DNA of 64,000 nt from positions 124,001 to 188,000 of the forward strand of contig CALNWN010000002.1 in NCBI GenBank assembly GCA_940746715.1. The letters are read 5' to 3'. Source of the DNA: an uncultured Paraburkholderia sp. (GTDB taxonomy: Bacteria; Pseudomonadota; Gammaproteobacteria; Burkholderiales; Burkholderiaceae). The notes under the pieces are model-generated. The model ran no database searches, was not told the origin of the DNA, and saw only the letters and a list, made by a program, of their open reading frames with translations. The position numbers and the translations under genes are program-made. Positions within the stretch are counted from its first letter, which is position 1. Each line of letters begins with the position of its first letter. This document shows, piece after piece, positions 1 to 64,000 of this stretch.

Positions 1-496
1 GGCGCGCATATGCTGCATGCCGGCGCCGATATTCTGCTGCACGGCAGCCGCTTCGAGCCTTGCGGACTCACGCAACTCTATGCCATGCGTTACGGCACGA
101 TTCCCGTGGCTTCGCGCGTGGGCGGCCGCAGATACGATTGTCGATTACGCGCCGGATCAGGCACGCGACGAAGACTGCGCGACCGGCTTCCTGTTCGATG
201 GAGAAGACGTGCATGACGTCGCGCATGCCGTGGGCCGCACGTTGGCCGCATTCGTGCGGCCGTCGTCGTGGCATGCGTTGCAGCGCAATGCGATGAGCCG
301 CGATTCGAGCTGGGACGTGTCGACGTCGAACTATCTCGCACTCTACGCGGATCTCGTCGATGCACGTCCCGCACTGCGCGACACGCGGGTTCGCAAGACG
401 CATGGCCGTTCGAGAACCGCAGCAGCCGGCGCGCGCCAGGCTCGGCGGGATGAGGCATTCAACGCGGGCGTCGGCGAGATGGTGCTGAGCGCGTAG
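1..496 (+). pseudogene. glgA: Glycogen synthase, C-terminal part, frameshifted
   Basis: This is the 3' end of a GT5-family glycogen synthase, which transfers glucose from ADP-glucose to a growing alpha-1,4-glucan. The window edge cuts the gene. The first 40 residues contain the diagnostic acceptor-loop sequence SRFEPCGLTQLYAMRYGTIP followed by VASRVGG. The frame is lost at about position 125, where LADT would be expected. ADTIVDYA and TGFLFDG then continue in a second frame to a TAG stop at 494. Two missing bases or one extra base near 125 would explain it. The tail after about position 410 is Arg/Ala-rich and unlike GlgA. Identification is confident; whether the shift is genuine decay or a sequence error cannot be told here. 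Confidence 0.8.
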
Positions 497-538
497 CCGC
501 CAGCATGGCGCTACGCAGCGCTCGCGCGCGCTCGTGCC

Positions 539-1684
539 TCAGGACGCGCGCGAGACAAACGCGTCGTCCTTACCGCTGCGCTTGACCTCGTACATTGCCG
601 CGTCGGCGGCAGCCACGAGGCGGCGATAGTCGTCGACGGGATCCGGATAGCTGGCGATGCCAATGCTCGCGCGAACCATGCTCATGCCCATCTGCTCGTC
701 CGTGCGCACCACGCAGCCAATCAGGCGTTGCGCGATGTGACGCAGTTCTTCCTGCGCGGAGAACTGGCGAACGAGCACCGCGAATTCATCGTCGCCTATT
801 CGCGCGACGACGTCGTCTCTGCGCACCGATTCGCGAAAGCGCTTTGAAACCTCGATGAGAAACTCGTCGCCGACGCGGTGGCCGAGCGAATCGTTGACCT
901 GTTTGAAGCCGTCGAGGTCCATATACAGCACGGCGATCTTCCCTGCGCCCGCGTCGCTCGACGCCTGCATGGCTGCCTCCTCCAGCGCGGCCACGAGCTT
1001 GCGCCGATTGGCGAGGCCCGTCATCGGATCGTGCAGCGCGGCGTGCTCGAATTCGTGCGACTGGCCGGCCAGCTGCCGGTTGCGCTTCGCATACATGCCG
1101 AGCGCCGTGATCAGCATGCAGAACAATAGCGCCGCGATTGCGATAAGCATGCGCGAGACGAGCGTGATCCGCTTGCGCATGTCGGCGCTGTGCGCATCGC
1201 GCTGCGCGTGCCAGTAGGACGACGCGCTGCCGAGCAACGCGTCCATTTGCGCGAGCGTGGCGTCGGGCAACAGCACGGACGATGGAATACGCGGCGCGCC
1301 GACGGGACTGGCATTCACCAGCGCGGCGAGCGAGGCGAGGCGCCGCGTCAGTTCGGCGCGCGCCTCGCGGTAGCTGTTCGCCGCGGCGTCGTGCGCGCCC
1401 GGCACTTCGTCCCATACGCCCACCCGCGTGCGCGCCGTCTGCGCGTGCTCGACGGCCTCGAGCACGAGGCCTGCGTATTCCTGTTTGACCTGATCGGAAA
1501 ACACGGTTCTGATCTGCGTGGCCAGATACAACAAGCCGATCAGCAGGCACAGCAGCGACGCCACGGCGACGGTGGCTGAACCGGGGGGCGTGAGCCACCA
1601 GCCGCCTGCGCGCAGGCGGCCCGGGCGCCAGGCGAAGAGCGGCTCAGGGATGCGAGTAGAGGTCTTGCTGGCTTCCGCTGCCAT
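539..1684 (-). CDS. Membrane-anchored diguanylate cyclase (GGDEF)
   Basis: This 381-residue inner-membrane protein probably makes cyclic di-GMP from two GTP. It has transmembrane helices at about residues 37-57 and 176-198 enclosing a roughly 120-residue sensory loop, then a GGDEF domain opening at DPMTGLANRR (219-228). The active-site motif reads GDDEF (297-301), a substitution at the second glycine that many active cyclases tolerate. An RxxD product-inhibition site (R288, D291) sits at the usual spacing before it. DLDGFKQVNDSLGH supplies the metal-binding aspartate. The loop resembles no sensor domain I can name. The gene starts inside the end of the upstream gene (41 bp overlap), so the two are probably co-transcribed. 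It is intact. Confidence 0.88.
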   Translation of the reverse strand: MAAEASKTSTRIPEPLFAWRPGRLRAGGWWLTPPGSATVAVASLLCLLIGLLYLATQIRTVFSDQVKQEYAGLVLEAVEHAQTARTRVGVWDEVPGAHDAAANSYREARAELTRRLASLAALVNASPVGAPRIPSSVLLPDATLAQMDALLGSASSYWHAQRDAHSADMRKRITLVSRMLIAIAALLFCMLITALGMYAKRNRQLAGQSHEFEHAALHDPMTGLANRRKLVAALEEAAMQASSDAGAGKIAVLYMDLDGFKQVNDSLGHRVGDEFLIEVSKRFRESVRRDDVVARIGDDEFAVLVRQFSAQEELRHIAQRLIGCVVRTDEQMGMSMVRASIGIASYPDPVDDYRRLVAAADAAMYEVKRSGKDDAFVSRAS

Positions 1685-2477
1685 GTTGTCGATAGCTCAC
1701 GCGTCGAAAGAACGAACCCATTCGTGCAAAGAGATTGCTTTTCCGCCGCGGGCTCGACGCTGACGCGCGTCGTTCCTGCTGGGCGTATCTCGCTTCGCGT
1801 GCGGGGCGCGCGGATGCGAGCTGCGGCGCCGCTGCTTCGGTAGCGCGAGCGACGGTCGGCACGGCGCGCGGCGAGACGGCCGCTGCCGCCGCTGATCTCG
1901 AGGGTCCGTCGGCGGCATTGTCGGCGAGCACTTCTTCTTCCTCGTTGGGACGTGTGATCTGCCCGGTCCATGTCGACGGCTTGCGGCTCTCGTCAACGGA
2001 AGACGCCGACGGCTGCGCCGGAATCGCCGGCAAGTCGAGCAACGCGATGGTGTCCGCGGGCGTGGTGGGCGCAACGCCGGGCGTTCGCGCCGGCGCGCCG
2101 AGCGCGGACGTCACGAGCGGCGACGTCACCGGGGCTGCCGGCACCGTCGCGGAGGGCGGCGCGACGTCGACATTCATCGCGAGCGGACTGCTCGTTCCTT
2201 CCGACGATTTCGCCAGCACGGCCGCCGTATTGCCAGGCGCGGGCATGCGCAGTGCCTGACGCGCGCGGGCGATGGCCTCCGCGTAGGTCGTCGCTGTTGA
2301 ACCACACGCCATAAGCCACGCGGTGCCGACGACGCCGAACGCAAGCGCGCTCGCCGCCACGCACAGCGCGAGGCGTCCGAAGCGTGGCGTCACGCCCGTT
2401 GCATCGGCAGTTCCGTTATCGAAGTCCACATCGTCGTTGTCCGCGCGAACATGAGGCAAGTCAGGATTATTGTACAT
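1644..2477 (-). CDS. Hypothetical single-pass membrane protein, Ala/Pro/Ser-rich
   Basis: The product has 277 residues and I do not recognise a family. There is one clear hydrophobic segment (about residues 36-58, ending near a cysteine), preceded by an acidic N-terminus. A long low-complexity Ala/Pro/Thr/Ser-rich region follows, with a basic tail (RRKSNLFARMGSFFRRVSYR). The layout suggests a bitopic protein with a flexible domain. A GGAG lies nine bases before the ATG at 2477. The last 41 bp overlap the start of the GGDEF gene downstream, which implies coupling, so a role in that signalling pathway is an inference from position only. Part of the C-terminus could be out of frame, but there is no homologue here to test this. 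Confidence 0.6.
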   Translation of the reverse strand: MYNNPDLPHVRADNDDVDFDNGTADATGVTPRFGRLALCVAASALAFGVVGTAWLMACGSTATTYAEAIARARQALRMPAPGNTAAVLAKSSEGTSSPLAMNVDVAPPSATVPAAPVTSPLVTSALGAPARTPGVAPTTPADTIALLDLPAIPAQPSASSVDESRKPSTWTGQITRPNEEEEVLADNAADGPSRSAAAAAVSPRAVPTVARATEAAAPQLASARPAREARYAQQERRASASSPRRKSNLFARMGSFFRRVSYRQHGSGSQQDLYSHP

Positions 2478-62833: not shown

Positions 62834-63820
62834 GCGGTGCGCTCCGCTGCGAACGCGCCAGGCGCGCTTATGTCGATGGCCAGATTCTCGAGCGCATGGC
62901 CCTGCGCTTCGTCGGCCCAACGCACGTCGAGCACGCGCACCGGCATGCCGTGCTGCACGCAGTACGCGAGCCAGCGGATCTGGTTGTCCTGCAAGCGGTC
63001 GCCGGGGCCCTTCACTTCGATCAGCTCATAACGGCGCTCCGCGGGCCAGAGGCGGATGAGGTCGGGCAGACCGGAGCGATTGCCGCGCACGTCGCGCAGC
63101 AGGCGCTCGAACCACAGCTTCAGATGCGCGGCGGGCAGGCAGTCGAGCGCCGTCGCGACGAGTTCGGGCGTGAGCAGTCCCCAGAACACGAACGGCGACT
63201 GCACACCGTCTTTCTCGCGCAGATGCCGCAGAATCGTCTCGCGATACGCGCCGTTATCGAGCGCGGCAAACTGCGCGGCGCGCCGCGTGTGAAAGTCCGG
63301 CGCGTGGAGGTCAGCGGGGCCGCGTTGAAACGGATGAAAAAACGCGCCAGGCAACGCGGCGAATACCGGTTCCCAGCAGAGCAAGCCGAACAGCGAATTG
63401 ATCAACGCGTTCTCGACGTAATGCACCGGCGCGGTCTCGCACGTCAGATGGTCGCGCACGACGTATTCGACCGCCTGCGGCGCTAAAGGCCTCGGCAACG
63501 TCAACATGCTGCGTTCGGCCGCACGCGCAGCCGGCACACGAGCCGCGGGCTTGCCGAGCTTGCGCTGCAAACGCGACAGCATGCGCGCGATGCGCTGCGC
63601 CTCCTCCTCGCTTTCGGGCGAGATGGCCAATGCGGTGGCCCACATTTGCCGCCGTTCGCCATGCTGACCGATGCGAAAGAGCAGCTTAGCGCGGCGCATG
63701 TCCACGCATGAGTTAGACGTTTGCACGGCGCGAACGCGCGCGACGAGTTCATCGAGCGCAGTCTGTTCTGCATCGGCATTCATCAGCAATCCGAATGACT
63801 CTATCGACGCCAGCTCGTCG
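62830..63820 (-). pseudogene. VRR-NUC nuclease, N-terminal part missing
   Basis: About 330 residues match the last part of VRR-NUC proteins. MRRAKLLFRIGQHGERRQMW and AVEYVVRDHLT lie in the helical region. The nuclease core is NRSGLPDLIRLWPAERRYELIEVKGPGDRLQDNQIRWL (catalytic D and ExK). The frame stays open upstream of ATG 63789 to about 63820 with plausible helix sequence, then merges into lutC. Family members have about 200 more residues before this point. The gene overlaps the helicase start (ATGA), so the two acted together. The nuclease domain itself is whole. Confidence 0.75.
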
Positions 63821-63905
63821 CGGCAAAGAGCGGCACGTCGGGCCGCGGCCGCGCGGACGGCTGCGCCTGCCGTACTTTCGCGAGAAAGGCCTCACGCGTT
63901 GCCAT
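63801..63905 (-). pseudogene. lutC: LutC lactate-utilisation protein, N-terminal fragment
   Basis: GGAGG precedes the ATG. MATREAFLAKVRQAQPSARP and DVPLFAA match the start of LutC (YkgG), part of the LutABC L-lactate dehydrogenase complex. After about residue 29 the frame runs into VRR-NUC sequence and stops (SWRR-stop). Roughly 190 residues are lost. The ATG overlaps the end of lutB. Confidence 0.65.
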
Positions 63906-64000
63906 TGCCACCTCCGCGATTTTTCTTGTACCAGGCGTGGAACGTCTGCTTCGGCGCCTCGGGCAACTCACGTTACCTGCCCAGATATTCAGCGGGTTAT
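63892..64000 (-). pseudogene. lutB: LutB iron-sulfur protein, C-terminal end, frameshifted
   Basis: Only the last 35 or so codons lie in the window. LNIWAGNV and then LPEAPKQTFHAWYKKN, ending GGGNGNA, fit the C-terminus of LutB. The two pieces lie in different frames, broken at about 63970. The gene continues beyond the window edge. Confidence 0.6.

What the first reader, a model, noticed from the sequence alone, without database searches (positions are those of the whole stretch)
1..64000. Uneven gene decay: one 12.7-kb intact block in a heavily broken region
I count about 38 frameshifts, nonsense codons or deletion joints in about 26 genes. None falls in 9872-22555 (eight cobalamin genes and the SbcCD-like pair), where about nine would be expected at the rate seen elsewhere. 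Deletions remove catalytic cores while neighbouring genes stay whole. This suits recent reductive evolution, as in leaf-nodule or other host-restricted Burkholderia, with cobalamin synthesis kept under selection. Poor assembly is the main alternative.
Basis: partly seen in the sequence, partly recalled or inferred. Interest (0 to 1): 0.8.

Follow-up and report, generated by a model that had tools for sequence, protein, structure and literature searches.

The report
Decaying symbiont genome spares B12 genes
The genome of this likely plant-leaf symbiont is breaking down gene by gene, yet all 22 of the vitamin-B12-making genes examined are whole, likely because its only methionine synthase found needs B12 and two genes of its B12 importer are broken.

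Summary
The window lies in a 5.18-Mb Paraburkholderia genome about 95% identical in DNA to P. phenoliruptrix LMG 22037 (7.3 Mb). Of 54 LMG genes of at least 100 aa facing it, 26 are intact here, 23 broken, 5 absent. Over 71 genes of the wider 104 kb, two other relatives have none broken. The block 9872-22588 is intact in 10 of 10 genes, against 16 of 44 elsewhere in the window (Fisher p 2e-4).

Poor assembly does not explain it: the rpoB contig has no frameshift in 14.4 kb of coding DNA.

The leaf-symbiont guess is well supported: an extra cyclase is 88% identical to that of Ca. Paraburkholderia kirkii; LMG 22037 and WSM2230 have no such second copy.

Cobalamin synthesis is kept whole: 22 of 22 genes examined at three loci are intact, while btuC and btuD, importer genes, are gutted. 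MetE was not found; MetH is intact. On this lineage cobalamin genes show no significant rise in N/S (x1.17); broken genes do (x2.8). The likely reason is that the cell must make its own B12 for MetH. Insect symbionts give a precedent. New member of a known kind.

The parts
9872..10597 (-). cobM/cbiF, precorrin-4 C11-methyltransferase, intact
   Evidence: TIGR01465 307.5 bits; full-length ORF vs LMG
10626..11348 (-). cobK/cbiJ, precorrin-6A reductase, intact
   Evidence: NF005969 436.7 bits
11345..12433 (-). cbiD, cobalt-precorrin-5B C1-methyltransferase, intact
   Evidence: NF000849 542.9 bits; 98% identical to a public MAG protein
12439..13728 (-). cobL (CbiE-CbiT), intact; longest ORF given, LMG gene call has 422 aa
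   Evidence: TIGR02467 and TIGR02469 over cut-off
13782..13972 (+). cobalamin riboswitch
   Evidence: RF00174 108.2 bits, full model
13969..15567 (+). cobG, precorrin-3B synthase, open frame; longest ORF given
   Evidence: TIGR02435 331.4 bits; covers 0.85 of LMG cobG, a gene with a segment of variable length
15573..16199 (+). cobH, precorrin-8X methylmutase, intact
   Evidence: NF006136 369.8 bits
16196..16939 (+). cobI, precorrin-2 C20-methyltransferase, intact
   Evidence: NF004647 447.3 bits
16936..18753 (+). cbiG-cobJ fusion, precorrin-3B C17-methyltransferase, intact
   Evidence: TIGR01466 290 bits plus CbiG-like N-terminus
18792..21416 (-). SbcC/Rad50-like ATPase, intact; below named-family cut-offs
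   Evidence: SMC_N, AAA_23; matched in 11 of the 39 other genomes
21413..22588 (-). SbcD/Mre11-like phosphoesterase, intact; below SbcD cut-off
   Evidence: TIGR00619 48 of 77.65 bits; Metallophos
1..526 (+). end of a broken starch/glycogen synthase-type glycosyltransferase gene
   Evidence: frameshifts; Pfam on LMG homologue
3409..4436 (-). broken metallophosphoesterase gene
   Evidence: frameshifts; intact span 0.63; Pfam on LMG homologue
8281..8474 (.). two deletion joints; 3,372 and 1,988 bp of LMG missing, removing lrgA, lrgB, a trehalase paralogue, a carbonic anhydrase and most of a 2OG-Fe(II) oxygenase
8472..9806 (+). broken MFS transporter (478 aa in LMG)
   Evidence: intact span 0.47; Pfam on 456 of the 478 LMG residues
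22636..24062 (+). broken DUF445 gene, first break right of the block
   Evidence: intact span 0.44; Pfam on LMG homologue
24153..25433 (+). AI-2E-type transporter with core removed; joint at 24236 with 11-bp repeat
   Evidence: 733 bp missing
25566..27319 (+). broken FAD-binding monooxygenase-type gene; joint at 26796 with 10-bp repeat
27533..28569 (-). broken ketopantoate-reductase-family gene
29403..30669 (-). broken aminotransferase
30809..31814 (+). broken LysR regulator
35437..39093 (-). broken hybrid histidine kinase (1,197 aa in LMG)
   Evidence: stop and frameshifts; intact span 0.58
41181..41620 (-). MipA remnant; joint at 41612 with 9-bp repeat, adjacent PMSR-domain gene lost
   Evidence: 1,535 bp missing
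42469..45241 (.). three broken genes: PLP-dependent enzyme, LysR regulator, pirin
44960..45913 (-). AhpF-like reductase remnant (name inferred from domains); joint at 45390
   Evidence: 1,078 bp missing; intact span 0.31
46731..48776 (-). broken PrpR-type sigma-54 activator
50159..53044 (.). three broken genes: MFS transporter, GNAT acetyltransferase, 2OG-Fe(II) oxygenase
56871..58369 (+). broken VpsR-type sigma-54 activator
61387..64000 (-). broken Rad3-like helicase and FAN1-type VRR-NUC nuclease; joints at 62544 and 63621
   Evidence: 840 and 98 bp missing

Best explanation
This window comes from a Paraburkholderia genome that is decaying in most of the stretches sampled, likely that of a Rubiaceae leaf symbiont, and its 12.7-kb unbroken block is likely spared because its eight cobalamin genes are needed to make the cofactor of MetH, the only methionine synthase found, in a cell that would no longer import B12. 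Shown: frameshifts, stops and deletions break about half of the genes compared on contig 2; 22 of 22 cobalamin-synthesis genes examined at three loci are intact; btuC and btuD at the third locus are gutted; no MetE domain was found and MetH is intact. Inferred: weaker purifying selection in a small host-bound population lets breaks fix; many larger deletions arose by slippage or end joining between short repeats; cobalamin genes that break are purged because the plant host supplies no B12. The intact SbcCD-like pair next door is kept for another reason or by chance.
For: Breaks are specific to this lineage: of 71 LMG genes in 104 kb, this genome keeps 30 intact with 35 broken and 6 absent; WSM2230 keeps 69 (0 broken, 2 absent) and HU18 65 (0 broken, 6 absent). 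Not read error: 0 frameshifts in 14.4 kb of rpoB-contig coding DNA, where about 11.7 are expected at the contig-2 rate (p 8e-6); 40 of 61 one-base indels lie in runs of one or two bases. Cobalamin: 22 of 22 intact against 62 of 114 other present genes of the compared regions, Fisher 1.4e-5. Selection: N/S on this branch relative to the LMG branch is x1.17 (0.88-1.55) for 20 of the 22 cobalamin genes and x2.81 (2.18-3.62) for 28 broken genes. Need for B12: no match to PF08267 or PF01717 in the three genomes searched, MetH open at 914 aa with no stop. Import lost: btuC 0.16 and btuD 0.48 of full length here, 1.0 in WSM2230. Leaf symbiont: EEVS-like gene 88% identical to Ca. P. kirkii, best solved match 4p53. 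Precedent: PMC10689751 (passages seen).
Against: No reads were seen. The MetH-only state is shared with LMG 22037 and WSM2230, so it predates the decay. Twenty-two genes at three loci are not 22 independent trials. btuB and btuF remain intact, and another B12 transporter elsewhere was not sought. The 3.8-kb SbcCD-like pair is intact but has no link to B12. Other intact non-cobalamin genes relax only slightly (x1.34) and do not differ significantly from cobalamin genes (z 0.72), so the N/S result marks cobalamin as kept, not as unusually kept. rpoB-contig genes stay intact although their N/S rises x8, so intactness and N/S can part. A one-base indel sits at the very end of bluB, without shortening the match to the reference. 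Contigs 11 and 13 break at 0.71 and 0.99 per kb near metH and aroB, so essential neighbourhoods are not spared as such. The host is inferred, not known.
Confidence: 0.8

Rival explanations
1. The breaks are mostly sequencing or assembly errors of a draft genome, and the block is a stretch that happened to be read well.
For: The assembly is a 51-contig draft and no reads could be mapped.
Against: 0 frameshifts in 14.4 kb of rpoB-contig coding DNA and 3 in 23 kb on contig 3, against 85 in 104 kb on contig 2. 40 of 61 one-base indels are in runs of one or two bases, 21 in longer runs. 9 of 25 large joints carry exact repeats of 7 bp or more, against 0.2% of random pairs; such repeats are shorter than usual assembly words (recalled). 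N/S rises x2.8 in the broken genes, which indel errors would not do.
Confidence: 0.05
2. Decay is real and neutral, and the intact block is only the luckiest run.
For: With 30 of 71 genes intact, runs occur; another seven-gene intact run lies on contig 2 left of the window.
Against: Permutation p 0.0026 for the run, and the other two cobalamin loci are intact too: 22 of 22. No significant N/S rise in cobalamin genes.
Confidence: 0.08
3. Cobalamin is kept for another B12-dependent enzyme, or for the plant or neighbouring microbes, rather than for MetH.
For: Other B12-dependent enzymes were not searched. A review (PMC8635114; listing and start of abstract only) discusses cobalt as a plant nutrient.
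Against: Plants are not known to use B12 (recalled). MetH is intact and MetE was not found, which suffices. PMC10689751 reaches the MetH reading for insect symbionts (passages).
Confidence: 0.12

Closest known systems
Leaf symbionts of Rubiaceae (Ca. Paraburkholderia/Caballeronia kirkii, calva, humilis)
   Same: Burkholderia s.l. with an EEVS-like cyclase, 83-88% identical here; eroded genomes (recalled for them, tested for this one)
   Different: This lineage sits beside P. phenoliruptrix in Paraburkholderia, while PMC12411853 (passages) names the kirkii symbiont Ca. Caballeronia kirkii; degrees of decay were not compared
Non-nodulating Vanguerieae endophytes, OTU 7 near B. phenoliruptrix (PMC3555867, passages)
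   Same: Nearest named species
   Different: The passages seen give 16S similarity only; the host of this genome is unknown
Burkholderia symbionts of eriococcid scale insects, and Hodgkinia and Evansia (PMC10689751, abstract and passages)
   Same: Cobalamin synthesis kept together with MetH and without MetE
   Different: Those insect symbionts are far more reduced (under 0.9 Mb for the Burkholderia); here decay is recent, the host is likely a plant, and B12 import genes are being lost

Membership tests
Reduced-genome leaf symbiont of Burkholderia s.l. | Genome smaller than free-living kin, with many pseudogenes | tested here: met
   5.18 vs 7.3 Mb for the nearest relative and 6.3 Mb for WSM2230; 35 broken and 6 absent of 71 genes
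Reduced-genome leaf symbiont of Burkholderia s.l. | Acquired EEVS-type cyclase for cyclitols, absent from free-living relatives | tested here: met
   3 DHQ_synthase matches vs 1 each in LMG 22037 and WSM2230, the only two relatives searched; 88% to Ca. P. kirkii, best PDB match 4p53
Reduced-genome leaf symbiont of Burkholderia s.l. | Lives in and is inherited through plant leaves | not testable with these tools
   Source of the genome is not given
Cobalamin riboswitch RF00174 | Covariance-model match over gathering score | tested here: met
   108.2 vs 31.5 bits, positions 1-189 of 189
De novo cobalamin pathway (CobG/CobN type with CbiD and CbiG) | Corrin ring, cobalt insertion, adenosylation and loop-assembly genes intact | tested here: met
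   22 of 22 genes examined; not checked against a full list of pathway steps
Canonical SbcCD nuclease | Scores over curated SbcD/SbcC cut-offs | tested here: not met
   SbcD 48 of 77.65 bits; none of the listed families over cut-off for the ATPase
MetH-only methionine synthesis | MetH present, MetE absent | tested here: met

The most novel reading that the evidence does not exclude
A plant-leaf symbiont caught becoming B12-autarkic: it is losing B12 import while its whole 22-gene synthesis route stays under full selection, because a MetH-only bacterium inside a host without B12 cannot drop the pathway. B12 synthesis would then set a floor for genome reduction in MetH-only plant symbionts, testable across all eroded leaf symbionts.
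Probability: 0.5. Interest if true: 0.6.

Novelty: new member of a known kind. Interest (0 to 1): 0.47.

Why it matters
It is an early snapshot of erosion in a lineage close to a sequenced species, so breaks can be compared gene by gene. It shows one costly pathway held whole while about half of the genes around one of its loci break. It also gives a concrete reason (MetH-only, importer broken, host without B12) that predicts which other symbionts must keep the pathway. Three library searches listed no paper about cobalamin in Rubiaceae leaf symbiosis (two papers each, 10 of 57 listed); these listings were not opened for this point, and the key paper, Danneels 2023, is not held. So this is no claim of priority.

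Tried and rejected
Hypermutation by loss of mismatch repair: mutS is intact (897-aa frame); MutL was not tested. Homopolymer read error: rejected as the main cause. Re-acquisition of the cobalamin block: rejected, it is collinear with LMG at background identity. Insertion sequences as the cause: the window aligns to LMG nearly end to end, with no unaligned insert longer than about 190 bases, so no element of usual length sits in it. Asking whether named leaf symbionts keep cbiD: none is named among the 120 of 8,000 hits listed, so no answer. A first gene call merged the SbcD-like gene with DUF445; corrected. Global alignment across large deletions produced false indels; counts were taken. Rows dropped before counts: cobG and cobU are missing from the N/S count (20 of 22 genes); one of 26 joints, with a 42-bp overlap; the 62-of-114 background leaves out absent genes and LMG genes beyond the 104 kb on contig 2 (over that longer stretch one search gives 45 intact, 51 broken, 58 without a locus of 154); the 41 own stretches leave out three of contig 17 (0.18, 0.35, 0.14) and five (0.38 to 0.72). 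My gene caller is home-made and some reference calls may be spurious.
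Full report
Where the window lies. It is bases 124001-188000 of contig 2 in a 5,181,803-base, 51-contig genome of 99.93% completeness. A protein of the window is 97% identical to one in Paraburkholderia phenoliruptrix LMG 22037. Of 144 genomes of the genus searched, the closest match is G092, 95% at DNA level, 7.3 Mb. Its contig 6 has the length and coordinates of LMG 22037's NZ_CADIKB010000006.1. G110 and G011 match Burkholderia sp. WSM2230 and P. phenoliruptrix HU18 in the same way. The window is collinear with LMG contig 6, reversed.

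Is the decay real? I wrote a codon-usage gene caller, trained on the relatives, and asked what share of each LMG protein one open frame of this genome still covers (0.85 or more counts as intact). Over 104 kb, 71 LMG genes of at least 100 aa were compared: 30 intact, 35 broken, 6 absent here. WSM2230 has 69 intact, 0 broken, 2 absent. HU18 has 65 intact, 0 broken, 6 absent. In the window's share, 54 genes: 26 intact, 23 broken, 5 absent. In 41 sampled stretches of this genome, ORF genes of 250 aa or more cover 45% of bases on average (range 22-66%), against 66% (42-78%) in 33 stretches of relatives (Mann-Whitney p 5e-10). So decay is widespread, not local.

Is it an assembly artefact? The contig that carries rpoB shows 0 frameshifts in 14.4 kb of coding DNA; at the contig-2 rate of 0.81 per kb about 11.7 are expected. 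All 11 of its genes not cut by the contig ends are intact. Other regions: contig 3, 0.13 per kb; contig 1, 0.20; contig 7, 0.26; contig 11, 0.71; contig 13, 0.99. Of 61 one-base frameshifting indels over the compared regions, 40 lie in runs of one or two bases. Of 25 large joints tested (one of 26 dropped), 9 carry an exact direct repeat of 7 bp or more, against 0.2% of 5,000 random pairs. That points to slippage or end joining between short repeats as a common cause of the larger deletions (inference). The other 16 joints have repeats of 1 to 6 bp.

The intact block. It holds cobM, cobK, cbiD, cobL, a cobalamin riboswitch, cobG, cobH, cobI and cbiG-cobJ, then an SbcC/Rad50-like and SbcD/Mre11-like pair below named-family cut-offs. 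All 10 genes are intact against 16 of 44 elsewhere in the window (Fisher p 2.2e-4); the run of 10 has permutation p 0.0026. One caveat: cobG only just passes, because a segment of that gene differs in length among the relatives too; the frame here is open.

The rest of the pathway. Contig 7 holds bluB, cobB, cobO, cobA, cobW, cobN and a ChlI-like chelatase subunit, 7 of 7 intact; one one-base indel falls at the very end of bluB without shortening its match. Contig 3 holds cobT, cobS, cobC, cobD, cbiB, cobU and cobQ, 7 of 7 intact. In that same locus btuC keeps 0.16 and btuD 0.48 of its length; both are whole in WSM2230; btuB and btuF are intact. In total 22 of 22 synthesis genes examined are intact, against 62 of 114 other genes that are present in the compared regions outside the rpoB contig (Fisher 1.4e-5, background tallied by hand). 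The three loci are the independent units, so the p-value is optimistic.

Selection. Changes were assigned to this branch or to LMG's with WSM2230 as outgroup. The ratio of N/S here to N/S on the LMG branch is 1.17 (0.88-1.55) for 20 cobalamin genes, 1.34 (1.05-1.70) for 41 other intact genes, 2.81 (2.18-3.62) for 28 broken genes and 8.2 (3.1-21.7) for 11 genes of the rpoB contig. Cobalamin differs from broken genes (z 4.52) and not from other intact genes (z 0.72). The rpoB figure rests on only 5 nonsynonymous changes on the LMG branch; it suggests weaker purifying selection overall, as expected in small host-bound populations (inference). In broken contig-2 genes the branch ratio is 0.22 against 0.08. 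If breaks mean a jump to neutrality, roughly 15% of the branch has passed since (crude inference). Decay is therefore likely recent.

Why B12? No match to MetE domains PF08267 and PF01717 was found in this genome, LMG 22037 or WSM2230, while 10 of 14 control genomes match each. MetH is present with an open 914-aa frame, and it covers the LMG gene fully. MetH needs cobalamin and plants are not known to supply it (recalled). With btuC and btuD gutted, the cell would depend on its own synthesis. PMC10689751 (abstract and passages seen) draws the same MetH conclusion for Burkholderia of scale insects, and notes the same pairing in Hodgkinia and Evansia.

Which lifestyle? This genome has three DHQ-synthase-family matches, LMG 22037 and WSM2230 one each. 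The two extra ones are on contig 17: a 401-aa gene and a fragment. The first matches the solved cyclase 4p53 best and is 88% identical to the protein of Ca. Paraburkholderia kirkii, 86% to Ca. P. calva and 83% to Ca. B. humilis. That 4p53 is a valiolone synthase is recalled; the listing says 'Cyclase'. PMC3555867 (passages seen) reports five Rubiaceae species with endophytes nearest B. phenoliruptrix at 99.4% 16S similarity. A Rubiaceae leaf symbiont is thus the best reading; the host itself is not shown.

What stays open. Reads, the host, other B12 enzymes and other importers. The SbcCD-like pair has N/S ratios like LMG's, but its ATPase is matched in only 11 of the 39 other genomes; its survival may be chance.

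Noticed in passing
L189-L191 (G000:C17:1-60000): A contig of lower G+C (about 0.57) and low ORF density (28-44%) carries the EEVS-like gene, a second EEVS fragment, a YcaO protein, a methyltransferase, a radical SAM protein, a UDP-sugar dehydrogenase and a TniB-type gene: a likely acquired, partly decayed metabolite island.
   Followed up: partly
L196 (G000:C13:36665-41400): The glutamate synthase large-subunit gene (1,567 aa in LMG) beside aroB is broken by several frameshifts and a deletion, a loss in central nitrogen metabolism.
   Followed up: partly
window 61387-64000: A Rad3-like helicase and a FAN1-type nuclease, neighbours in LMG, are both broken by deletions; loss of a repair pair could itself favour deletions.
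   Followed up: no
window 31834-35480: A LuxR-type regulator, a receiver-kinase, CheB and CheR are intact while the 1,197-aa hybrid kinase beside them is broken.
   Followed up: no
window 44960-46668: An AhpC-type peroxiredoxin is intact while the AhpF-like reductase next to it has lost its core.
   Followed up: no
P0121: A public MAG holds a CbiD 98% identical to the window's, so another genome of this lineage may already be deposited.
   Followed up: no
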